Shown: positions 2,585 to 64,000 of the stretch, one piece after another
Numbering within the stretch: position 1 is the stretch's first letter
How the letters are laid out: each line of letters opens with the position of its first letter
Assembly (NCBI RefSeq): GCF_030253575.1
Contig: NC_080562.1
Location: 42,385,852-42,449,851, forward strand
Direction: 5' to 3'
Origin: Rhododendron vialii
Taxonomy: Eukaryota > Streptophyta > Magnoliopsida > Ericales > Ericaceae
Length of the DNA stretch: 64,000 bases
Notes under the pieces: generated by a model
What the model saw: the letters and a program-made list of their open reading frames with translations, nothing else
Database searches by the model: none
What the model was told of the DNA's origin: nothing
Translations under genes and position numbers: made by a program

Positions 2585-4577
2585 TCAATACACAGGAATC
2601 AGGCATGCCAATGAAGCCAGAACAAGAGACTTAAACATAACCCAAGATGGAATCCGGCCGTTATCATCCCTCAAGAAGAGTGCTTGGTACACCGGCAAAT
2701 TAATCACAACCACTACCAAGCAAAGACCGATTTGCACAGTCAAGCCTTCGGTGATACCATAACCCCAAACGACTTTCAAAATTCCCCCAGCAAAGCCGAA
2801 AAGGTTTAGCAAAGCCAACGTTGCTATTATTGTCAACATGACAGATGAGGTTCCAAATTCCATCATCCCTTCCTCGTACCTCTTCAACACGTCGTCGCCG
2901 ACCACTTTAGCCGTGATGGAAAACCCCGTATGAGAGAAGCCCAATTGCTCAGTGATGGTGTCGATGAAGGCGAAAAGGTAGGAAGTTGTCCGGTGAAATA
3001 GCCACATCCGTTGAGAGTTCCACCATGCTTTGAGTGTTTCTCCACATGTCAGGGCCTCAGCTATGCTACAAGCATTCCTAGCTGCATATACATATGCAAA
3101 AGGCAGGAACCAAAGGCTTGACACCTGAATCATCAGTGAGACAATACATTGGACCAAAACTTCACAGGAAGACCTAAAATATTTCATCCAAGTGGAGTAT
3201 TTGGTGCGGGCTGAGCCATTATTTATGTCTAAATCTCCTAATCGAAATCCTAAATGAAGAAATCCAAAAGATCATGGCTGTGAATGTTCCCCATGGCTAA
3301 AAACAGATTTTCGGAGAACGAGTCAATCGGAAATATCAGAGACCTATAGATTGAAATTTGTAGACACTTTTGCATGAGGGCATGGTGTACAAGATGAAAA
3401 TCTCACATATGGTGCTGCAACGTAATATCTTCTGTACAATGGGTCAATCAACACAATCGAAAATCACAGGGGAAAAAAAAGAACATTCTCAAAATTGCAA
3501 TTGTTTTTTTTTTTTTCCCCCCTTCTTCTCCTAACACAACTCATCACAAGCTTAAAACCACATGGAAAATTTTGTTTTCAAAAACTCAGTACTTGCCCAA
3601 TAGTGACTCCAAACCCCATCGAATGCAATTCTGTCAGTACAAGATACTACTTAAAACTTGAAAACTTTTATGGGTCTGTTGTCCAAAGTTGTACTAAGAA
3701 TCTCCATGCTGTCCAATTCTACTTTTTCTAGTCTATTGTACAGAGAGAGAGAGAGGGAGAGGGAGAGGGAGAGGGAGAGGGAGAGGAAGAGAGAGAGGGG
3801 TTACCTCGGGAAATAAAGGAATGCTGCGGAGCAGGCAAATAGAGGGGATGATGAGATAATTGAGCAAGGCTACGGAATTAGGAGCAAACAAAAGGTACAC
3901 ACAGTAGCCCATTTGGGCACCTAGTTTGATCTTGCCACGGGCATATATAAAGGGGCAGTACTTGGACAAGAAGATCTGGAACATGCCTTGACCCCACCTC
4001 TTGTGCTGGACAAGAGCAAGATCTAAGGTGTTTGAAGCCACACCCAGAAAGGCCTTCCTTTCTGGATTGTAGTAGACTGGTTTCCATCCCCTGCATTGGA
4101 TTCTCAATCCAGTAATGAGGTCTTCTGACAAACACCCGTACACCAATCCCATCTGCAAATCCATACACATGAAATGCATACTATCATTCCGATTTTAACA
4201 ATGTAAATAGAGATGGATCCAAGGGGCCGAGCGATCCCAAACACTTACAAACCCCGATAATTGCACTCATTATGAGCAACTTAGGATACCCAAGAGGAAT
4301 TCTCATCAAACAGTTCATTTTCCCGAATATCTTGGAGATTTGAGTTTATAACCTCAAATTATTTTTATACACATCATTGGTTTGGTTTATACTGAGCAAG
4401 TTTAAGGAACATGTGACATCAATGCTATTTTGTGGGGTAAGGAAAACACAATTAAACAAGTTTAAGAAATTATAGTAATACTTCATATCTTTTAATTATT
4501 CACTGAGCGGCACAAATGGTTTCGCTGTCCAAATTTACAATCGTGGATCCATTCCTGTACAGATGTATATCTGTGGG

Positions 4578-10794: not shown

Positions 10795-13693
10795 TCAATA
10801 CACAGGAATCAGGCATGCCAATGAAGCCAGAACAAGCGACTTAAACATAACCGAAGACGGAATCCGGCCGTTATCATCCCTCAAGAAGAGTGCTTGGTAC
10901 ACCGGCAAATTAATGATAACCACTACCAAGCAAAGACCAATTTGCACAGTCAAGCCTTCGGCGAAACCATAACCCCAAATGACTTTCAAAATCCCCGCAG
11001 TAAAGCCGAAAAAGTTCAGCAAAGCCAACGTTGCTATGATTGTGAACATGACTGATGAGGTTCCAAACTCCATGGTCCCTTCCTCGTACCTCTCCAACAC
11101 ATCGTCGTCGACCACTTTAGCTGTGATGGAAAATGCTGATTGAGAGAAACCCAATTGCCTAGTGATGGTGTCGATGAAGGCGAAAAGGTAGGAAGTCGTC
11201 CTTCGAAAATACCACATCCGTTGAGAGTTCCACCATGCTTTGAGTGTGTCTCCACATGCCAGGGCCTCGGCTATGCTACAAGCATTCCTGGCTGCATATA
11301 CATATGCAAAAGGCAGGAACCATGGGCTTGACACCTGAGTCATAAGCGAAAGTACATTGGAGCAAAATTTTAGGCAGGTACCCAAAAGGGCCGAAACAGC
11401 TAACAGATAAGTGTCGGAATGCAGAGTGATTCGTTCATCCTAGTGGAGTGTTGGCGGGGCAGAGCCATGATTCTTTTATGTAGGTGCTAATCAACAAAGC
11501 CATTACGATTTTCATGGCTGTGAAACTTCCAGAGGGCTAAAAACAAATTTTCGAAGGACTAGGCAATCTGGAATATTAGAGACCTTCAAATTGGAATTTC
11601 AGACACTCTTGCATCAGGACATAGCGGAATAAGATGAAAATCTCACCCATGGTCCTGCGATGTAAATATTTTCTGTACAATGGCACAATCAACACTGTTG
11701 GAAAAAAAAATGGACAAGGCAATATTCTGAAATCCTGGTCAAGCAGATTTTTTCCGGAAAAAAGAGCTTAAACCAGTACTTGTCCTATAGTGGCTCCGTC
11801 CATAATTGCAGGCGTCAAATACAATTCTGCCAATACAAGTTTCTTAACACATGGAACTTTTATGGGTCTATAGTATTCTCCAATGTTTTATTTAGAGCAA
11901 GCCCACTTTTGGGCCAATGCCATGTCGAAGTCGAAATTTAGCATCAAGAATGGCAAACCCCTCTCCACCCTCGTGTCAAATTCAATGCTAATCTCTGGTT
12001 ATGCAATTGTAAGTTCCAAATTTGGCAAAAGTGGAACTTGCCACCGCATGGCCGTTTGGCTAAATAAGCCAAGTGGCTTATTTTTTTGTCCTTATTCAAA
12101 TTTTTTTCGCATTTGTTAGTTTTTCGTTAATTTTTTGGGGATCATTGTTTCTTCATGACAAGAGGAATCTAAAAAGTAAAAAATTACAATCGAAACCTAA
12201 TTTTTTTGAAAAAAACAAAAATAAGCTAATTTTTTCGTCTTTATTTAAAAAAAATAGATTTCGATCGTAATTTTTTACTTTTTAGATTCTTCATGAAGAA
12301 GCAATAATCCTCAAAAAATTGACAAAAAACTAACAAATGCGAAAAAATTTGAATAAAGACAAAAAAAAATAAGCTAAGTGACTTATTTAGCCGAACGGGA
12401 AAAATTGGTTTATTGGCTTATTTTCGTCTTTATTTAAAAAAATTAGGTTTCGATCGTAATTTTTTACTTTTTAGATTCTTCATGAAGAAGCAATAATCTC
12501 CAAAAAATTGACAAAAAACTAACAAATGCGAAAAAATTTGAATAAAGACAAAAAAAATAAGCTAAGTGACTTATTTAGCCGAACGGGAAAAATTGGTTTA
12601 TTGGCTTATTTTTATCTTTATTCAAAAAATTAGGTTTCGATCGTAATTTTTTACTTTTTAGATTCCTTTCGTCATGACGAAGCAATAATCTCCAAAACGT
12701 TGACGAAAAACTAACAAATGCGAAAAAAATTTGAATAAGGATAAAAAAAATAAGCCACTTGGCTTATTTAGCCGAACGGCCAAAGTGTGGGAAAGGTGGT
12801 GGCAAAGGGGGAAGAAAGGTGGTTATGCCAAAATGTGGAGCAACCCTGTCATTTGTTGGCAGATTGACATTATAGCCAGCCAAAATGGCTTTGGCAATGC
12901 CATTTTGGCACCGGCGGGTGGATGGTCTCCATGTCATCCAGTTCTACTTCTGCCAGTCTATTGTGTACACACCCGCACACACGTAGAGAGAGGGAGGGAG
13001 GGTGGTACCTCTGGAAATAAAGGAATGCCATGGAGCAGGCAAATAGAAGGGATGATAAGATAATAGAGCAAGGCGATGGAGTTAGGAGCCCACAAAAGGT
13101 ACAGACAGTAGCCCATTTGGGCACCCAGTTTGATCTTGTCATAACCATATGTGAAGGGGCAGTACTTGGACAAGAAAATATGAAACATGCCTTCACACCA
13201 CCTCTTGTGCTGGACAAGTGATATATCTAAAGTGTTCGGAGCCACACCCAGAAAGGCCGCTCTTTCCGGATTGTAGTAGACTGGTTTCCATCCCCTGCAT
13301 TGGATTGTCAATCCAGTTATGATGTCTTCCACCAAACACCCGTACACCAATCCCATCTGCAAATCCATACACATGAAATGCATATTAACCTTCCCATTTC
13401 AACAATAGAAATAAAGATCAATGTACAGACCCCCATTGTTGCACTCGTGATAGTCATGAATTATGAACTGATAATGAGAACCATAGAGGAATTCTCCTCA
13501 AACAGTTCATTTTCCTGAATTTCTCTGGTGAGTTTGAGTTTACAATTGATTGCTTCTTGTGGGTAAAAGGAAGATGAAACTAAAAAAGTTTAAGGAATTG
13601 TTCGAATTCTTCATATTCTCTAAGTGAATGTTATATGGTTTCACCGTCCAAATTTACAACCGTGGATCTGTCCATGCACAGATAGACGTATAA

Positions 13694-16700: not shown

Positions 16701-19700
16701 AAAACCTATTACAAGCATAACAGAACTATAACACGGCATAACCAAAACCATAGCAAGGCATAACTTATTTGTTATGCCTTGGTTGGGTTTAGTTACGCAT
16801 TGGTTGATTTTTTGGATATTTCTTAATTATGCCTTGTTTGGGTTCTGTTATGCTTGTAATTGATTCTAGTTATGCTCTTAATGGTAAAGTTATGCCAAAA
16901 ATTACGGTGTCCCCAAAATGACCGAGGACACCATAGCATCATCCGCAAAGTACTAGTAGGTACCAAAACGATTACCATATACTCCCTCCGTCCCACTTTA
17001 TTGCACATGTTTCCTTTTTGGAACATCTACAAAAATTGTCTATATCTCACAAACTTTAATGTTTTTTATGATTTTGAGAACTTTGTTTAAAAAAATAAAT
17101 TAAGATCTATCAAACAAGATCCATATTAAATATATAAAATACTGTAGATTGTGAGATATAAATAATTTTTTGAGACGTCTAAAAAAGGAAACAGGCGAAA
17201 CAAAGTGGGACGGAGGGAGTATATATATAGGAAATTTTTTACAAATGGTCCCTTTAGTTTACACGAGTTCTCATTTTCGTCCCTCTAATATTAATTGTAT
17301 CAATTTCAACCCTATAGTTTTCCATCTCAATTTCATCCCTCTCTCTGACGCCGTTAATGAAACAAACGGAATTAAAGGGCAAAATTGTCATTTTCTCTCA
17401 TAGAATGACTAAATTGAGATTTTATGTAAATTAGAGGGACTATTTTTAAAATTTTACATTTTACTTTCGTCTTTTGCAAATAAAATAAAAAAGATTAGGG
17501 GGCGACTATTCACAGCCCTTTATTTTCTTTCTCAGCCCGTTAAAAATTTTCAACTAATTACAACATGACCCCCTAATGCAAAATGACCTACTTACCCTTA
17601 TACCTATACGTGAAATGACCTACATGCCCTTATGACCAAAACCCTAAATTATCTTCTTCCTCATTCCCCTCAAAAATCATCATTCACGTTTTAAAACACA
17701 CACATCAGGCAACTGTTCATCTTCTTTTCTCCTCTCTCTTTCTTCTCCATTTTCATCCTCTATTTTCTCCTCTCTCTCAAATTTTCCAATGGAGGAGAAG
17801 TAAGGGCCAAATATTGTATCAATGGAAGGTTCAAGTCCTTCCATTGATCCATTTTTTGACCCACTTGTAGGTTTGGATTTTGAAATTGAATCAAATTCTA
17901 TTGACAACCATATGATGGCAAATGAGAAGAAAGATACTGTGATGGACATTGTATCTTGGAAGCCGCTTGAGGAGGTAAGTTTTTCCGTTTACAATGGTTT
18001 CTGCTTTGTTGTTGTGGCGTCTGGGTTTACAAATTTCAGTTTTTCGAAGTGTTTGGTCCGAATAGAATAAAGTAAGTAATTTTAGTAGCTAACCACTGTA
18101 AAATATTATCATACTCGACAGTTAGTTACCGAAATTAAGATACATTTTCAGCATCCAATTACCAAAATATATGTTTCTTGTTTTTGTTGTATGCATTTCT
18201 GACATATAGTTACCGAAATATAATCTTGTTTTCAACAGCTATTTACCGAAATGTATGTATGATTTTCGTATATAGTAGTTTGGCAGTTGTTTACCGAAGG
18301 TTGAATAATTTTTGACATGTAATTACCGAAATATAATATTGTTTTCAACAGATATTTACCGAAATGTTATATATGATTTTCGTATATATAGTTCGGCAGT
18401 TGGTTACCGAATTTTGTACATATTTTCAACATGTTGTTATCAAAACTAATCTAATTGCTATTATTGTATATATACATACATGTATGTATATACTCACAGA
18501 GAGAGAGAGTGAGAGAGAAAACGACACCTTGAAGAGAGGCGATGGTGGCTATGGGGGTGGGAGACGACAATGGAGGGGGGGTGTGGCGGCTTAACTAATG
18601 TCTTTGTATCATGTTCTTATAATTTCCTTATTTTTTCACCCGATAAAAAAAATATTCAAAATCCGTGTTTATTTGTTATATGAGTGATTTTATGAGTAAA
18701 TCCCAAAATAAATACACTTATACCCATATTTTAATGTATTTGATCTCTTAACATTCAATAGTGTTTCATTGCTTAATTAAACAAAATTACAAAGATTTCT
18801 AAATACTATTGAACAATTTTTTCTTTTTAATTATGTGACAAAGAAAATAACAAGATTGAAAATTCAATTGAAAAAAAAATACAATACCAAGACATTTAAC
18901 CTAAGGGTTGCTTTTCGAATTTTCTCATATTTTTTGTGATATATATAATAAAACCTTTAAAAAAATTCAACATATTTTGATTATTCAATATAAAATGAGA
19001 TGAAAAATATATTACATATGATGTATTTTAAACTTATTTACAAAAACAAAAGTATAAAATAAAATTATAGAAATAGTTCCTCTAGTTTGTATTAAATCTC
19101 AATTTAGTCCCTCTGTGAGGAGAAATGACAATTTTGTCCTCCAATTCCATTTGTTTCATTAACGCCGTAAGTGAGAGGGACGAAATTGAGACAGAATGCA
19201 AATTATATGACTAAAATTAATACAATTGATACTAGAATGATGAAAATGAGAATTCATGCAAACTTGAGAGACCATTTATAAAATTTACCCTTGAATTAAT
19301 CAACAGGCATAATTCTGTTCAAAAAAAAGAAGGCATAATTTGCAAAGGATGATGCTATGGTGTCCCCGGTCATTTTGGAAACACCGTAATTTTTGGCATA
19401 ACTTTACCATTAGGAGCATAACTAAAATCAATTACAAGCATAACAGAACCCAAATAAGACATAACCAAGGAATATTCAAAAAACCAACTAAGGCGTAACT
19501 AAATCCAACCAAGGCATAACAAATAAGTTATGCCTTGCTATGGTTCTGATTATGCCTTGCTATGGTTCTGTTATGCTTGTAATGAGTTTTGGTTATACTC
19601 ATAATGGTTTTGTTATGCCAAAAGTCACTACAAGAAAAAGTATGTTTAGTGACGAAAAAGTGGCGACAAAATTTAATTTCGTCGCTAAATGAGTATATTT

Positions 19701-54009: not shown

Positions 54010-57000
54010 TCAGCCGGTTCCAAGCCCGGATAAAGGAGGAGGGTTGTGCGTTAGGTAGCTGACAGCCAACACATAAAAAAAACCCGTCAAATTTTTATGA
54101 CATGAATCCAAATATGATTACGAGACATACTAGGGCGTTCCCTTTAAGCGACGCGTTGTGCCTGCCTTCAGGTGTTTCAAAAAATGAGCAATGGGCGCCA
54201 CACCGGTGCCCGAGTGTGATGATAAGTGAGCAAGGGTTCTCGCGCGTGCCTGGACGAGCGCGGGTAGAGAAGCTAGCCCAGGACTATAGGATTCGTTAGC
54301 AACTTGGAATATAGAGACATTAACGGATAAGACTAGGGAGCTAGTTGACACCATGCTTAGGAGGAGGATTAGTATAGCTTGCCTTCAGAAGACTAAGTGG
54401 GTAGGAGAGAAAGCTAAAGAGATAAAGGACACAGGTTATAAGCTTTACTATACGAGTAAGGATAGACATAGAAATGGGGTAGGTATCGTAGTAGATAAAC
54501 ATCTGAAAGATTCGGTAGTTACGGTAACGAGAAAAGGAGATCGGATTATTTTAGTTAAGCTTGTGCTCGGAGAGAGTATAGTTAATATTATTAGTGCTTA
54601 CGCACCCCAAGTAGGCTTGGATGATCTTATTAAAGAGCAATTCTGGGAGCAAATGGATGACGTAGTTCAAGGGATACCTTTTGGGGAGAAGCTATTTATA
54701 GGAAATGATTTCAATGGTCATGTGGGAATGCATAAGCAAGGGTATGAGAAGGTACATGGTGGCTTTGGATTTGGTGACCTTAACGAAGGTGGTAGGAGGA
54801 TTTTAAATTTCGCGGTAGCTTTTGACCTTATAGTTGGGAATACTCTCTATAGGAAGCGAGATGAGCATTTAATTACCTTTAAGAGTGGAGCCAACAGAAG
54901 CCAAATCGACTATTTTCTTGCTCGAGTGGCAGACCGCTTGACATGTAAGGATTGTAAGGTTATTCCCAGAGAGTGTCTAGTAGCACAACATAGACTTTTG
55001 GTGTTAGATATTTGTCTCAAGGGGAATAATAAAAGGAGAAAGGAAACTAGATGCCTACGGACTAAATGGTGGGGCCTAAGAGGGGAGAAACTACAGGTAT
55101 TCAAGGAAAAAATGTCTCAAGAAGTACGGTGGGAAGTGGAAGGCGATAGTGACAATATGTGGAATACGATAGTTGACGGTATTAGAAGAATATCAAAAGA
55201 AGTTCTTGGCGAGTCGAAGGGAAAATGTCTAATTTCTAAGGAGACATGGTGGTGGAATGACGAGATTCAAACCATAATAAAAGCAAAGGAGTGCTTTAAA
55301 AAGTGGCAAAAGGACCGGAATGTGAAAAATTTTCAGGGCTATAAACAAGCTAGCAAGGAAGTTAAGAAAGCCGTTAGGGATGTAAAGTTGAAAGCCTATG
55401 AGAATTTCTACGTTAGACTCGATAGTAAAGATGGAGAAAAGAGTATTTATAAACTTGCTAAGCTACGAGAAAGGAAAGTTAGAGACGTTTCTCAAGTTAA
55501 GTGTATAAAAGATATTGATTCGGTGGTGTTGGTGAAAGACGACGCAATTAATGATAGATGGAAGTCGTATTTCGATAAGTTGTTAAACGAGAAACATGAA
55601 GGAGGCTTTGGTGGGGAGGAAGTGTATATACCTGACGAGAGCATAGAATATGAGTTTTATCGAAGAATATAAAAGTTCGAAGTGGTTAAAGCTTTGAAAA
55701 GAATGAAACCGGGTAAGGCCCTAGGACTAGATGGTATCCCTATTGAAGTGTGGAAAAGTCTAGGTGACTTGGGGGTGACTTGGTTGACGAAGTTATTCAA
55801 CAAGATTATTATGACTAGGAAGATACCCGACGAATGGAGAAAGAGCACCTTAGTATCTATCTATAAGAATAAATGGGATATTCGAAGCTGCAACAACTAT
55901 AGAGGTATTAAATTGATGAGTCATACAATGAAGTTGTGGGAAAGAGTTATTGAGCATCGCTTAAGGATGGTGACTACGGTGTCAGAGAAACAGTTTGGGT
56001 TCATGCTAAGAAGATCAACCATGGAAGCTATCTACCTATTCAGGAGATTGGTAGAAAAATACAGAGCAAAGAAGAAGGATCTCCATATAGTTTTCATAGA
56101 CTTAGAAAAGGCTTATGATAGGGTGTCTAGGGACCAAAGGGTATATCGAGGTGATTAGAGACATGTATGAAGCTGCCGTCACTACCATTAGATCATCAGT
56201 AGGGGAAACGAGTGAATTTCCTATCACTGTAGGATTGCAGCAAGGGTCAGCCCTGAGCCCATACCTCTTTGCCTTAGTTATGAATGAATTGACTAGACAA
56301 TTTCAAGAGGATATTCCATGGTGTATAATGTTTGCAGATGACATTGTCCTCGTAGATGAAACTGCTAGAGGTGTTAATACGAAACTAGAAATTTGGAGAG
56401 AAGCATTAGAGTCAAAGGGTTTTCGGATAAGTAGGAGTAAAACTGAGTATATGATGTGCAAGTTTAGTGGTACCAGTAGTGCGAGTGAAGAAAGAGTGAT
56501 GATCCAAGACCAGGAGATACCAAAGAATGATCATTTTAGGTATTTAGGCTCAATTATTAGTAAAGATGGAGAGATTGCTGATGATGGGACCCATTGGACC
56601 CAAGTGGGGTGGCTCAAGTGGAGAAGCGCTACTGGTGTACTATGTGACAAGAGGGTACCTACAAAATTGAAGAAAAAATTCTATGGAACTGCCATAAGAT
56701 CAGCAATGCTTTATGGGACAGAATGTTGGCTTATTAAGAAATAACATGTGAGCAAAATGAGTGTAGCAGAAATGAGAATGTTGAGGTGGATGTGTGGTAA
56801 GACTAGACGAGACAAGATTAGAAATAAAACAGTTTGTGAGATGGTAGGTGTAGCACCTATAGAGGAGAAGTTGAGGGAAAATAGGCTAAGGTGGTTTGGG
56901 CATATCTACCGTCGATCAGAAGATGCAGTAGTTAAGAAAGCGGATAGGATAGCTCTAGGTAGCAATGTTACGGGGAGAGATAGACCTAAATTGACATTAG

Positions 57001-59580: not shown

Positions 59581-62470
59581 CTACCTTGAATAAGGATGGT
59601 ATCGGCTACTGCCGCTATAGCCTCCCCTTCCATATTGCCCACCTACTCCACCATAACTAGCACCAGGACCAGAGTCATAACCGTCATAGCTTGAAGCTCC
59701 ATAACTCCCATAACCTTCGCCCCGACCATATCCGCCTAAACCACTTCCTCCATAACCCCCACTCAACCCACCACCATAGGATCCAAAGCGGCTAGAATAA
59801 CCAAGGGAAGATTCACCTCGATATGCTCCTAAGCTACTGGTTCCAAAATCTCCATAACCACCAAATTCACTCCCACCGCCACCGTACGCACCATATCCAC
59901 CAAACCTAGTGCCAATACCTCCTGGTGTCCTATTGGGGCCAGGACCAAAACCTCCATCAAAACCCACATATGAGCTGCCAAATCCACCCAAGTTATCATT
60001 GAAAGAACGAGCCCTAGAGTTGCTACCATATGCAGGAGTAGGTGGTGGTTTTGAGGTTTTCTTTGGTTCTGCTTTCTTGATCTCCACCTACAACAAAGCA
60101 ACTTAGTTAACCTATTTTCTATTAGATGCAAACTATTGTGAAGAGTCCTCCTGAGAAGATGATCTAACACTGAAAATCTTGATCCAACATCAGAAGTAAG
60201 CTCCCAAAAGTAATTACCTCTGAGACAATATTTAAAGAAGTATACAGTGTAGAAATGCATGGCATACATAATACTGAGGACAAAAGAGAATTCAGTTTTG
60301 CATGCCCTGGAAAAAGTAAAAACGTGTATCTGATTACATATTGATATCTTGGGGACCATGGAACTAAGCTCACCTGGGTACCCTCCATATCAATTATATG
60401 TCCTTTGGATAAAATTTCATCAACAACTTCCTCATTGTCAAATATTATAAATCCAAATCCTCGAGAACGGTTGGTCTCGCGATCACGAATGATTTGGTGC
60501 TCAACGACTTTCCCATACTTGGAGAAGAAACCCTGGAACTCATCTGATCAATTCAACATACTCAAAAAACGTTACAAGAGTTCAAATAAATGGCACATGA
60601 AATATGTCTACATGAACTGAAAACAAGAAAAGCAAACCTTCAGTAACTGTTGATGGCACGCCCCCAACAAATATCTTCTTTGTTTTGAATCCACCTGATT
60701 GCCCTGCTCCTTTTGGAATAGTTCTTTTAATCTCAACCTACCCATATTCACACAGCAAATAAAAACAGGTCAATATGCATATAGAATTACAATTATACCA
60801 GAGATTGATCATCACTAGCACGCAGTTCAAATTGCCAAGTCCAAAAGAATCTTACCTGCTTTCCATTGATGATGTGGTTATCTACGATAACCTTGTCAAC
60901 AACTGAAGGATCAGCATAGGTGATGAATCCAAAACCCCTTGGATTCCCTGTATGCCGATCTTTCATTATCACTGAGTCTGTAATCTCTCCATACTTCCCA
61001 AAGTGCTCATTGAAAGTAGCTGTTTTCAATAAATAACAATACTGCATCAGCCAATAAACAGTACTGAACATCTAATGAACATCATGCTGATATCAGGCAT
61101 GCTATTCAACATCAAATTGGTCAATTTGAAGCAACCTAGAATTTACAGGTACCAAACATGCAGTACTAATCAGTGAAAACTCCTAAACATGGGAATAGAT
61201 GCCATAAGCAGTTTTCATGGAATAGATTCTACATCAGCTAATAAAAGGTACAGGAGGCCTAATCATCAAAAGTACAGAATGCCTAATCACCATTAATTAT
61301 GACACTGATGATAGGGATGCTATTCATCATCAAGTTGGCCAAATAAAACCAATGTAAAATGTAAAGATACCAAACGTGATGTATGAACAAGTGAACACCT
61401 AAGCATGCAATGCCATAATCCAATCAAGATGCAGATATCATATCACCTCATTACAAACAGGCTAGCCAACCTCACCAACAAAACTTTGAGAGAAAAAAAA
61501 CCTAATACTATACTAGCATTTAGTATGATCATCAAGAAACCGCATCCCCAAATAAGGATTCTCGAGTTACCCTCAGTACGAGAGGCCCAACAGACCATGA
61601 AGTTCACTAGCCCAACCAATTTATCATCTCCAATTAGAGAATCCAATTAAAAACTAACACTAACAAGTCACAAGTATAACCAACCCATAAATTCCCCAGA
61701 CACAAAAATGCAACATGATTCAGTAATTTGACCACAACCAGGCTGTTAATGCACTAAAAAGAACCCGTCTATTGACAAAGCAAGGAGACTAGGAGAGTCT
61801 ACAAATCAACAAATCGCCATAAGTCCCCGTCATTAGACATACCAAAGCACGCAAATGGGTTATGTTTAATCACATTGCACGCGTCAAAGTACATTCTAGT
61901 ATTCTACACAGTACACACACATAAAGCTACGCACATACACGCGCATATCTCTTATCTATTATAAATGCAACACCCCTTTGTGGTGTGATTTGTATGAACA
62001 TCAGTTTAGAGGATGACTCACACTTCTTTTTTTTCAAACTACCCTTTAACTGCCTAAATAAACTGCCAGCCCAATTTTTTTCACCCCTTTTCTACTTTCA
62101 CATCCCAGATATCATTACAGACTAATCAAAAGTCAAGATTTTTCGCTTTCCATCTTTTGCATAACTCAGTTTGCTCGTGCATCGTATATGCCCTGGCGTC
62201 TAGTATCAATCTACATATGTATATGTATTTATGGAGAGAGAGAGAGAGAAAGAGGAATTGTTACCGTTAGTGGTGTCTTTTGCCAATCCACCGATGAAGA
62301 TCTTCCTGAAATTCAAACAATTAAAGTTCAAAATTAGGGTAGGAAATTCTTGAACAGCCTAATTATTAAACGAATGAAATGAAAAAGGCGTGAAAAGGGC
62401 ATCTATCTAACCCAGGACTAGCACCATCATCTCCTGAGCGGGGGTTGAAGCTCTTCGATTTCGAACCCAT
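59581..62470 (-). CDS. Glycine-rich hnRNP-like RNA-binding protein with two RRMs (6 exons, 346 aa)
   Basis: Minus-strand coding exons 62412-62470, 62265-62305, 60856-61019, 60638-60737, 60374-60543 and 59581-60087 (stop TAG). GT-AG junctions and phases agree throughout. RRM1: RNP2 KIFIGG (21-26) and RNP1 RGFGFITY (61-68). RRM2: RNP2 KIFVGG (109-114) and RNP1 RGFGFIIF (149-156). The C-terminal region (about 190-346) is rich in Gly, Tyr and Ser and ends SSRYHPYSR. Layout and the linker KRTIPKGAG match the Arabidopsis RBGD1/RBGD3 (At1g17640/At3g13224) group of hnRNP A/B-like proteins, whose low-complexity tail is linked to stress condensates. The 5' leader has GA repeats and intron 2 begins GTAACAATTCCTC followed by a CT repeat. 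Confidence 0.93.
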
Positions 62471-62654
62471 GATCTCTCTCTCACCAGCTCTCTCTGGTTT
62501 GCTTCGGGAGACTTTCACCGGCCTCACACGATGATGAAAGGGATCTTCTAGGGTTTGTGATAAGGATATCGACGGGGGATGGAGAGGGGTAGAATGGATC
62601 TAGGGCTTGTTAACAAATGATTTACGTAATTTTACAAAGTTCCTTTATACAAGT

Positions 62655-62870
62655 AAAGTTAAATGCGTTCTTAGTACTAGCGTTTTTATTACTGCGGCCA
62701 AATCCAATAAGCTATGGGTGCAAAGCCGTTGCTGGCCGGAAACTTTTACAGTTTAAAAGCGTTCTTATTAGTAACGCTTTCTATTTGTTTTTGTACTTTA
62801 CTCCTGGGCGCAAACTTTGACGCTTTGGTTAAAACCGTTTTTACTGCTTACGGTTTTCTTTCTTTTGCTG
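62655..62870. repeat. Cluster of short hairpins upstream of the hnRNP-like gene
   Basis: Successive small palindromes: aaagcgtt...aacgcttt (about 62755-62783), aaaaccgt...acggtttt (about 62831-62857) and cggcca...tggccg (about 62694-62740), plus a degenerate one near 62661-62686. Loops share (t)tactR-like sequence. Nature unknown; no frame of note. Confidence 0.55.
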
Positions 62871-62878
62871 CGGCGGCC

Positions 62879-62985
62879 GGGCCAGAAATTGGGCCTGTCG
62901 GACTTCTTGGGCTTGAAGTAGACCAACCTATATATTAAGTCCAAAACAATTGAAATAGGTCCAAACTAATTTTTAAAAATCTTTC
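62879..62985. repeat. Left ~110-bp direct repeat flanking plastid-like DNA
   Basis: From gggccagaaatt to aaaaatctttc. Same orientation as 63447-63566, with about 12 bp fewer near its start and a handful of substitutions. Confidence 0.9.
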
Positions 62986-62989
62986 TATG

Positions 62990-63318
62990 AAAAATTACGT
63001 ACAAAAGAATAGGAGAATCGTTTCTGGCCTCTTGGGAATTGCGCATATAGAGATTCAAAAAAGAATCGATCTGATCCAAGTCTGAATCTATTTGGCATTC
63101 CCAAAACTCTTAAAAGAAAGTCCAATGACAGCATTACAGATGAATCTACAAAAAGAATTTTATTGTGTAAATCAAAAACTCAACATTGATATTACAAGAA
63201 TTGCAAAACCTCATGGAAACTCTATTATTCTTGCACAATACATAGCCGGACAATTAAAATATAGAGTTCCATTTCGAAAAGCAATGAAAAGGGCTATTGA
63301 AAAAACAAAAAAGCAAAG
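62990..63318 (+). pseudogene. rps3: Chloroplast rps3 fragment in nuclear DNA
   Basis: One frame reads [31 protein letters not shown], a TGA stop (63083-63085), then [56 protein letters not shown] and MKRAIE. This is the central part of plastid ribosomal protein S3. The start and C-terminal third are missing. After MKRAIE the sequence becomes Lys/Gln-rich and no longer resembles rps3. It lies between two direct repeats. Best read as a nuclear plastid insertion (NUPT), now non-functional. Confidence 0.85.
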
Positions 63319-63446
63319 ACAAAAAGTGACAAAGAAAAGACCAAAAATGGATTAAATGGACAACTCGTAGAAAGAAAGGAAAAAAAGTCACAAATAAAGG
63401 CCTAAAAGAAAAAGATCCTTTTTTTTAAACAGTTGTTGGACTGGTC

Positions 63447-63566
63447 GGGCCAGAAATTGGATTGTAAATTGGGCCTGTTGGACTTCTTGGGCTTGAAGTA
63501 GACCTACCTATATATTAAGCCCAAAAACAATTGAAATAGGTCCAAACTAATTTTTAAAAATCTTTC
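63447..63566. repeat. Right ~120-bp direct repeat flanking plastid-like DNA
   Basis: Direct counterpart of 62879-62985, from gggccagaaatt to aaaaatctttc. It includes a ttgggctt...aagcccaa inverted pair inside. Confidence 0.9.
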
Positions 63567-63671
63567 AAGTGACCTCAAAATGCTTCTTTTTCTTTTCTTT
63601 TTCCCTCAAAAATCTCCGAGATAAATATTTCCACCATTATTTTTTTTAAATTATTTTCATAAGATTTCTTG

Positions 63672-63740
63672 TTTTTTTTTGGCCATTAGTTGAATCTTTT
63701 GCTTATCCACGCAGATGAAGACCTTCCTCAAATTCCAACA
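63672..63740 (-). pseudogene. Decayed copy of hnRNP-like gene exon 2
   Basis: On the minus strand, ttggaatttgag|gaaggtcttcatc...gcaaaaga...actaatg matches the acceptor and exon 2 of the gene at 59581-62470 (tttgaatttcag|gaagatcttcatc...gcaaaagacaccactaacg) over about 50 bp, including intron sequence. It has lost the AG/GT borders and gained small indels. No other exons of that gene are seen nearby. The remainder (63741-64000) is AT-rich; 63845 onward resembles the foldback family at 12050. Confidence 0.7.
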
Positions 63741-64000
63741 ATAATAATGGAAAATTATACTAGAAAGGGTATGCTTTAAAATTTCAATTTTTTTTCCAAA
63801 AATCGAGCTTAAAAAAAATGTAATTGAATCAATCCTCAAGCTAGGTTTGGATTAAAAAGTTGGGAGTAACTTTTTTTTTTGTCTTTATTTATTTATTTTT
63901 TATATATTTCATATTTATTAGTTTTACGTTGAATTTTTGTGATTTATTAATTTATCCCGATAAAATAAATTAATAAGTAATAAAAGTTTGACGCAATTTT

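What the first reader, a model, noticed from the sequence alone, without database searches (positions are those of the whole stretch)
62879..63566. Plastid rps3 fragment bracketed by 110-bp direct repeats
A piece of chloroplast rps3 in nuclear DNA lies exactly between two similar direct repeats (62879-62985, 63447-63566) that are not plastid-like. This resembles either a miniature terminal-repeat retroelement that captured plastid sequence, or plastid DNA used as filler during repair of a break with duplication of the flank. Neither is a routine NUPT structure.
Basis: partly seen in the sequence, partly recalled or inferred. Interest (0 to 1): 0.7.

Follow-up and report, generated by a model that had tools for sequence, protein, structure and literature searches.

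The report
Chloroplast gene fragment between duplicated flanks
A decayed piece of a chloroplast ribosomal-protein gene sits in plant nuclear DNA between two near-identical copies of about 110 bases, which looks like a scar left when the cell patched a broken chromosome rather than a jumping element.

Summary
The direct repeats are real: 62878-62985 (108 bp) and 63446-63566 (121 bp), 96% identical over 101 aligned columns, differing by 3 substitutions, a 1-nt and a 12-nt indel. Similarity does not continue into the flanks. Between them, one base after the left copy, a decayed plastid rps3 fragment begins (spinach chloroplast uS3 residues 42-154, one internal stop). The match ends near 63316; about 130 bp of A-rich, unassigned DNA precede the right copy. 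A TRIM reading fails the structural tests run: no 4-8 bp target duplication, no TG...CA ends, no TGG beside the inner end, no purine tract adjoining the far repeat, in either orientation; purine runs of 12 and 19 nt lie 30 bp and more away. Best reading: one-off repair of an uneven double-strand break, the ends filled in or copied (duplicating ~110-120 bp), with plastid DNA as filler. Tandem duplications from break repair are reported for rice insertions (PMC7407515 passage) and at nickase-made breaks (PMC8355091 passages). The decisive tests, copy number of the repeat in the host genome and an empty site in a relative, were not possible: the genome search did not answer in 19 attempts.

The parts
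62878..62985 (+). Left copy of the direct repeat (A_L), 108 bp; lacks 12 bp that the right copy has
   Evidence: 96% identity to the right copy; 3 substitutions, a 1-nt and a 12-nt indel
62987..63316 (+). Decayed plastid rps3 fragment (spinach chloroplast uS3 residues 42-154), one in-frame TGA at 63083-63085, three residues fewer than spinach; G+C by codon position 0.41/0.29/0.26 over 62987-63310
63317..63445 (+). A-rich filler tail of unknown origin, with a T run and then AAACAGTTGTTGGACTGGT; an imperfect 37-bp internal repeat (63310-63346 / 63371-63407, 78%); purine runs 63369-63387 and 63404-63415
   Evidence: no assignment
63434..63442 (+). 9-nt exact copy of a stretch inside the right repeat (63476-63484): at most a weak hint of locally templated synthesis at the junction
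   Evidence: 19 of 2000 random 22-mers of the window also reach 9 nt or more
63446..63566 (+). Right copy of the direct repeat (A_R), 121 bp; carries AAATTGGattgtAAATTGG where the left copy has one AAATTGG

Best explanation
[quoted passage not shown] Most likely two opposite-strand nicks, or a break with long single-stranded ends, opened the A segment; each end was filled in (or one end copied A and then switched template), giving A on both sides, and a free or copied piece of plastid rps3 plus an A-rich tail was joined between them. Shown: the duplicated flank in direct order, the plastid identity of most of the filler, similarity that does not continue into the flanks, the absence of the LTR-element hallmarks tested. 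Inferred: the uneven break, the order of events, and that it was a single event. From 3 substitutions in 107 sites and recalled nuclear rates of 5e-9 to 1.5e-8 per site per year the duplication would be roughly 1-3 million years old (95% limits over these rates 0.2-8).
For: Direct repeats in the same order flanking filler, no third copy in 64 kb. The stretches next to the copies are not alike. rps3 starts one base after A_L. No TSD, TG...CA, adjoining PBS or PPT in either orientation. A 9-nt copy of A_R beside the right junction is what copy-and-join repair could leave, but 19 of 2000 random segments reach that too. The outcome class is in print: rice insertions of 10-1000 bp include tandem and partly tandem duplications, ascribed to asymmetrical nicks and end joining (PMC7407515 section 4.3, passage seen, reporting Vaughn and Bennetzen 2014, itself not held); tandem duplications form at breaks with overhangs by fill-in and NHEJ (PMC8355091, abstract and introduction passages seen; its reference list names Schiml et al. 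2016 on adjacent nicks and tandem duplications in plant genomes, title only); organelle DNA serves as filler at breaks (PMC7037861 section 5, passage seen).
Against: The rps3 piece is only 67% identical (73 of 109 residues) to spinach, while the repeats differ at only 3 of 107 sites; it seems unlikely that all of that change came after insertion. Either the donor plastome has a fast-evolving or pseudogene rps3, or the filler was already an old nuclear or mitochondrial copy, or the repeats arose or were homogenised later. The stop count cannot decide (chance of at most one stop falls only from 0.96 to 0.34 between 5 and 36 neutral amino-acid changes). The filler is not one clean plastid piece: 130 bp are unassigned. 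Neither the copy number of A in the genome nor an empty site was seen.
Confidence: 0.68

Rival explanations
1. Two separate events: A was first duplicated in tandem (or occurred twice as part of a dispersed repeat), and plastid or older NUPT DNA was inserted later at or near the junction; or the reverse, an old NUPT beside A and a later duplication of A.
For: rps3 differs from spinach far more than the repeats differ from each other, tandem duplications exist elsewhere in the window (12232-12779, 18195-18445), and the filler has an extra unassigned 130 bp.
Against: An insertion that falls at the boundary of both copies needs a coincidence; no piece of A beyond the weak 9-nt match was found beside the junctions.
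Confidence: 0.17
2. A TRIM-like or other terminal-direct-repeat retroelement of 689 bp that took up plastid rps3 as cargo and moved as a unit.
For: Size and repeat length suit a TRIM: average 685 bp over 289 subfamilies, 197 of 289 with LTRs under 250 bp, gene fragments in 30 elements (PMC4717578, passages seen). Purine runs of 12 nt (63404-63415) and 19 nt (63369-63387) occur in the interval, though 30 bp and more from the right repeat. The same paper notes that diverged elements can lack PBS or PPT.
Against: No TSD of 4-8 bp (left words ending 62866-62885 against right words starting 63558-63577), no TG...CA, no TGG in the 17 bp inside the left repeat or in 48 bp of the minus reading, longest purine run 3 or 2 nt in the 19-20 bp adjoining the far repeat; rps3 starts one base inside. 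No further copy of A in the window. The 30 gene-bearing TRIMs of that paper were all flanked by 5-bp TSDs and were 1,172-1,449 bp.
Confidence: 0.06
3. The block A-rps3-A was made in an organelle genome (a repeat-rich rearranged plastome, or a mitochondrial genome with plastid inserts) and moved to the nucleus whole.
For: Some plastomes carry pseudogenes of duplicated genes, rps3 among them in Vaccinium macrocarpon (PMC4958920, passage seen), which would also explain a diverged rps3.
Against: None direct. The host species is unknown and no organelle genome was at hand, so A could not be compared; that the block is flanked by nuclear genes says only where it lies now.
Confidence: 0.05
4. Assembly artefact joining plastid reads into a nuclear contig.
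For: Plastid reads are abundant in plant libraries (general knowledge).
Against: The rps3 piece carries an internal stop and loses its match two thirds through the gene, and the two repeats have private differences, which a chimera of live plastid reads would hardly show.
Confidence: 0.03

Closest known systems
Natural insertions with flanking tandem duplication from patch-mediated or paired-nick break repair (Vaughn and Bennetzen 2014; Schiml et al. 2016; both known here only through other papers)
   Same: Direct duplication of target sequence, insertion size within 10-1000 bp (second-hand).
   Different: Here the filler is organelle-derived and diverged; none of the passages I saw describes that combination. 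The overhangs in the passages are called small, whereas here 110-120 nt are duplicated.
NUPTs (nuclear plastid DNA insertions)
   Same: Short, decayed plastid fragment in nuclear DNA.
   Different: The review passage describes junctions with 1-7 bp microhomology or blunt joins, without mention of a 110-bp target duplication.
TRIM elements
   Same: Overall size and terminal direct repeats.
   Different: No TSD, adjoining PBS or PPT, or TG...CA.

Membership tests
NUPT | Sequence of plastid origin | tested here: met
   Best match of both rps3 pieces among solved structures is spinach chloroplast uS3, E 3e-9 and 3e-23, against 4.6e-6 for the best bacterial chain. The last 130 bp of the interval are not assigned.
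NUPT | Located in nuclear DNA | tested here: met
   Interrupted plant genes and nuclear families in the same window; assembly not checked by reads.
Break-repair insertion with flanking duplication | Direct duplication of target on both sides of the filler | tested here: met
Break-repair insertion with flanking duplication | Empty site with one copy of the target in a relative or other haplotype | not testable with these tools
   No plant genome could be searched; the genome search gave no answer in 19 tries.
Break-repair insertion with flanking duplication | Target segment is single-locus | tested here: inconclusive
   Only the pair within 64 kb; genome not searched.
TRIM / LTR retroelement | Target-site duplication of 4-6 bp | tested here: not met
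   No shared word of 4-8 bp between left words ending at 62866-62885 and right words starting at 63558-63577.
TRIM / LTR retroelement | Primer-binding site beside the 5' repeat | tested here: not met
   No TGG in 62984-63002; first at 63025; none in 48 bp of the minus reading. TGG as start of a primer-binding site is recalled.
TRIM / LTR retroelement | Polypurine tract beside the 3' repeat | tested here: not met
   Longest purine run 3 (plus, 63427-63445) and 2 (minus, 63005-62986); runs of 12 and 19 nt lie 30 and 58 bp before the right repeat.
TRIM / LTR retroelement | TG...CA ends | tested here: not met
   Repeats run CGGGCC...CTTTC.
TRIM / LTR retroelement | Several copies in the genome | not testable with these tools
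   The genome search did not complete.

The most novel reading that the evidence does not exclude
The repeat A is a terminal repeat of an uncharacterised mobile unit that leaves no short target duplication and carries plastid rps3 as cargo, so that plastid DNA is moved around the nucleus by an element rather than only patched into breaks.
Probability: 0.05. Interest if true: 0.6.

Novelty: new member of a known kind. Interest (0 to 1): 0.24.

Why it matters
It is a readable example of how organelle DNA may enter a chromosome: the target duplication would record an uneven break and its filling. If such duplications are common round NUPTs, they would date insertions independently of the plastid sequence (repeat-to-repeat divergence, like LTR dating) and tell which repair route was used. 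As a single locus it is ordinary.

Tried and rejected
Larger duplication: the stretches next to the copies share nothing beyond chance. LTR/TRIM structure in both orientations: rejected, with the caveat that purine runs lie farther inside. Extension of A to the left through a 22-bp internal similarity (63434-63455 to 63476-63497, 77%), which would make the right copy the native one: its first 13 nt match at 10, which the best 13-mer of 71 of 400 random segments also reaches, so not used. Whether the rps3 changes are neutral decay: the stop-codon simulation is uninformative. Relatives of the second rps3 piece in viral contigs (72 stretches matched a pattern, none a relative) and in bacterial and archaeal genomes (152 stretches, one relative, Ruminococcaceae, 38%); DNA matches of 62879-63566 in plasmids and phages at E up to 1e-3 (none). 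These collections are not plant collections, so the misses say little. CACTA-type transposon ends in 62500-64000: the two longer recalled motifs (12 and 11 nt) had no match within 2 mismatches; the two 8-nt ones had 6 and 10 matches at 2 mismatches, no better than noise to my eye and not tested. NCBIfam: first rps3 piece no family; second TIGR01009 at 51.7 bits, below its whole-protein cut-off of 114.5. Papers: of those listed (20 of 29; 20 of 53; 14 of 14; 15 of 28), no title or shown start of an abstract is about NUPTs flanked by 100-bp target duplications; passages of PMC12181080, PMC4632043, PMC6215612 and PMC4504983 did not describe it either. Only open-licence papers are held.

Full report
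What is there. The window is plant nuclear DNA. Of 7 open frames given to Pfam, 4 were named (two cellulose-synthase-like pieces, a WEMBL protein, a protein kinase) and 3 were not. The gene next to the finding, on the minus strand with its ATG at 62470, reads as interrupted exons with two RRM_1 domains (E 6e-11 each) and a glycine-rich end; I call it hnRNP-type from recall. Upstream of that gene lie two direct repeats, A_L 62878-62985 and A_R 63446-63566. They align at 96% over 101 columns and differ by 3 substitutions, one 1-nt indel in an A run and one 12-nt indel, where A_R has AAATTGGattgtAAATTGG and A_L a single AAATTGG. There is no third copy in the 64 kb.

What lies between. In frame on the + strand, 62987-63082 matches spinach chloroplast uS3 residues 42-73 (24 of 32 identical, E 3e-9) and 63086 onward matches residues 75-154 (49 of 77 identical, E 3e-23); a TGA at 63083-63085 stands between them. 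The best non-plastid match is a bacterial S3 at 4.6e-6, so the origin is plastid. The recognisable match ends near 63316, about two thirds through the gene. The remaining 130 bp up to A_R is A-rich, has a T run followed by AAACAGTTGTTGGACTGGT, holds an imperfect internal repeat (63310-63346 and 63371-63407, 78%), and could not be assigned. So the fragment touches the left repeat (one base between) but not the right one, which corrects 'exactly between'.

Is it a mobile element? TRIMs are under 1,000 bp with terminal direct repeats and 4-6 bp target duplications, average 685 bp, and some carry gene fragments (PMC4717578, passages seen), so the size is suggestive. The structure is not. No 4- to 8-bp word is shared between the outer ends (left words ending 62866-62885, right words starting 63558-63577); the repeats run CGGGCC...CTTTC instead of TG...CA; there is no TGG in the 17 bp inside the left repeat, nor in 48 bp of the minus-strand reading; the longest purine run in the 19-20 bp where a polypurine tract should adjoin is 3 or 2 bases. 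Against this test stand purine runs of 12 nt (63404-63415) and 19 nt (63369-63387), which lie 30 and 58 bp before the right repeat in a generally A-rich stretch, and the paper's remark that diverged elements can lack these sites. But rps3 begins one base inside the left repeat, where a primer-binding site should be, and repeats that differ at only 3 of 107 sites leave little time to lose all the hallmarks.

Is it part of a larger duplication? Not by the test run. The 100 bp before A_L against the 100 bp before A_R, and the 100 bp after each, have local scores reached by 27.6% and 64.4% of 1000 shuffles.

Most likely mechanism. A direct duplication of about 110-120 bp round a piece of foreign filler is what is expected when two nicks on opposite strands, or resected ends, are filled in before joining. 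In rice, insertions of 10-1000 bp include tandem and partly tandem duplications, ascribed to asymmetrical nicks followed by end joining (PMC7407515, section 4.3 passage, reporting Vaughn and Bennetzen 2014; the original is not held). Small tandem duplications arise by fill-in of complementary 3' overhangs and NHEJ (PMC8355091, abstract and passages; experiments in mouse and human cells, overhangs called small; plant paired-nick work is cited there by title). Organelle DNA is described as filler at breaks (PMC7037861, passage). A copy-and-switch route (one end copies A, then plastid DNA, then joins) would give the same anatomy; the sequence does not separate the two. A 9-nt copy of A_R next to the right junction would fit copying, but 19 of 2000 random segments do as well.

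What does not fit neatly. The repeats suggest a young event: 3 substitutions in 107 sites, about 1-3 million years with recalled rates, limits 0.2-8. The rps3 piece is only 67% identical to spinach over 109 residues. Plastid rps3 differs among families, but I had no plastid genome to say how much. Either the donor plastome has a diverged rps3 (an rps3 pseudogene is reported in the Vaccinium macrocarpon plastome, PMC4958920, passage; the host here is unknown), or an older nuclear or mitochondrial copy was reused as filler, or the repeats arose, or were homogenised by gene conversion, later. The piece keeps uneven G+C by codon position (0.41, 0.29, 0.26), which any rps3 copy would inherit, so it does not say where the changes arose; the single stop codon is uninformative as well.

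What could not be done. The other collections searched (viral contigs, bacterial and archaeal genomes, plasmids, phages) gave no plant match. The repair reading therefore rests on anatomy alone.

Verdict. A real, tidy structure: a decayed NUPT with target-flank duplication, best explained as a break-repair scar. It is a new example of a known kind of event, and mildly interesting because the repeats could date the event separately from the plastid sequence.

Noticed in passing
62264-62336 and 63683-63757: 77% similar: the second looks by eye like a decayed copy of exon 2 and adjoining intron of the neighbouring hnRNP-type gene, same strand, beyond the right repeat, so this upstream region seems to have been rearranged before.
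   Followed up: partly
62659-62686, 62753-62780, 62829-62856: Three related 28-mers in the 240 bp just left of the left repeat; two of them hold perfect inverted arms of 8 and 7 bp, the first none of 4 bp or more. Reminiscent, from recall, of subterminal repeats of CACTA-type transposons, but no matching ends were found.
   Followed up: partly
62890-62895 and 63470-63475: Each repeat holds a TGGGCC motif (a site II/TCP-type promoter motif, recalled) upstream of the hnRNP-type gene; the event may have duplicated a promoter element. Positions read by eye.
   Followed up: no
62624-62639 and 62985-63000: A 16-nt inverted pair, 88% complementary, whose right arm spans the junction of the left repeat and rps3; possibly chance.
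   Followed up: no
12232-12779 and 18195-18445: Two other local tandem duplications, 189-bp period (2.9 copies) and 113-bp period (1.9 copies).
   Followed up: no
54290-56744: Open frames in different phases that look by eye like endonuclease and reverse transcriptase of a broken LINE; Pfam gave no family for the first frame, the others were not given.
   Followed up: no
2585-3271 and 10795-11439: Two cellulose-synthase-like C-terminal stretches on the minus strand (PF03552): probably a tandem gene pair.
   Followed up: no
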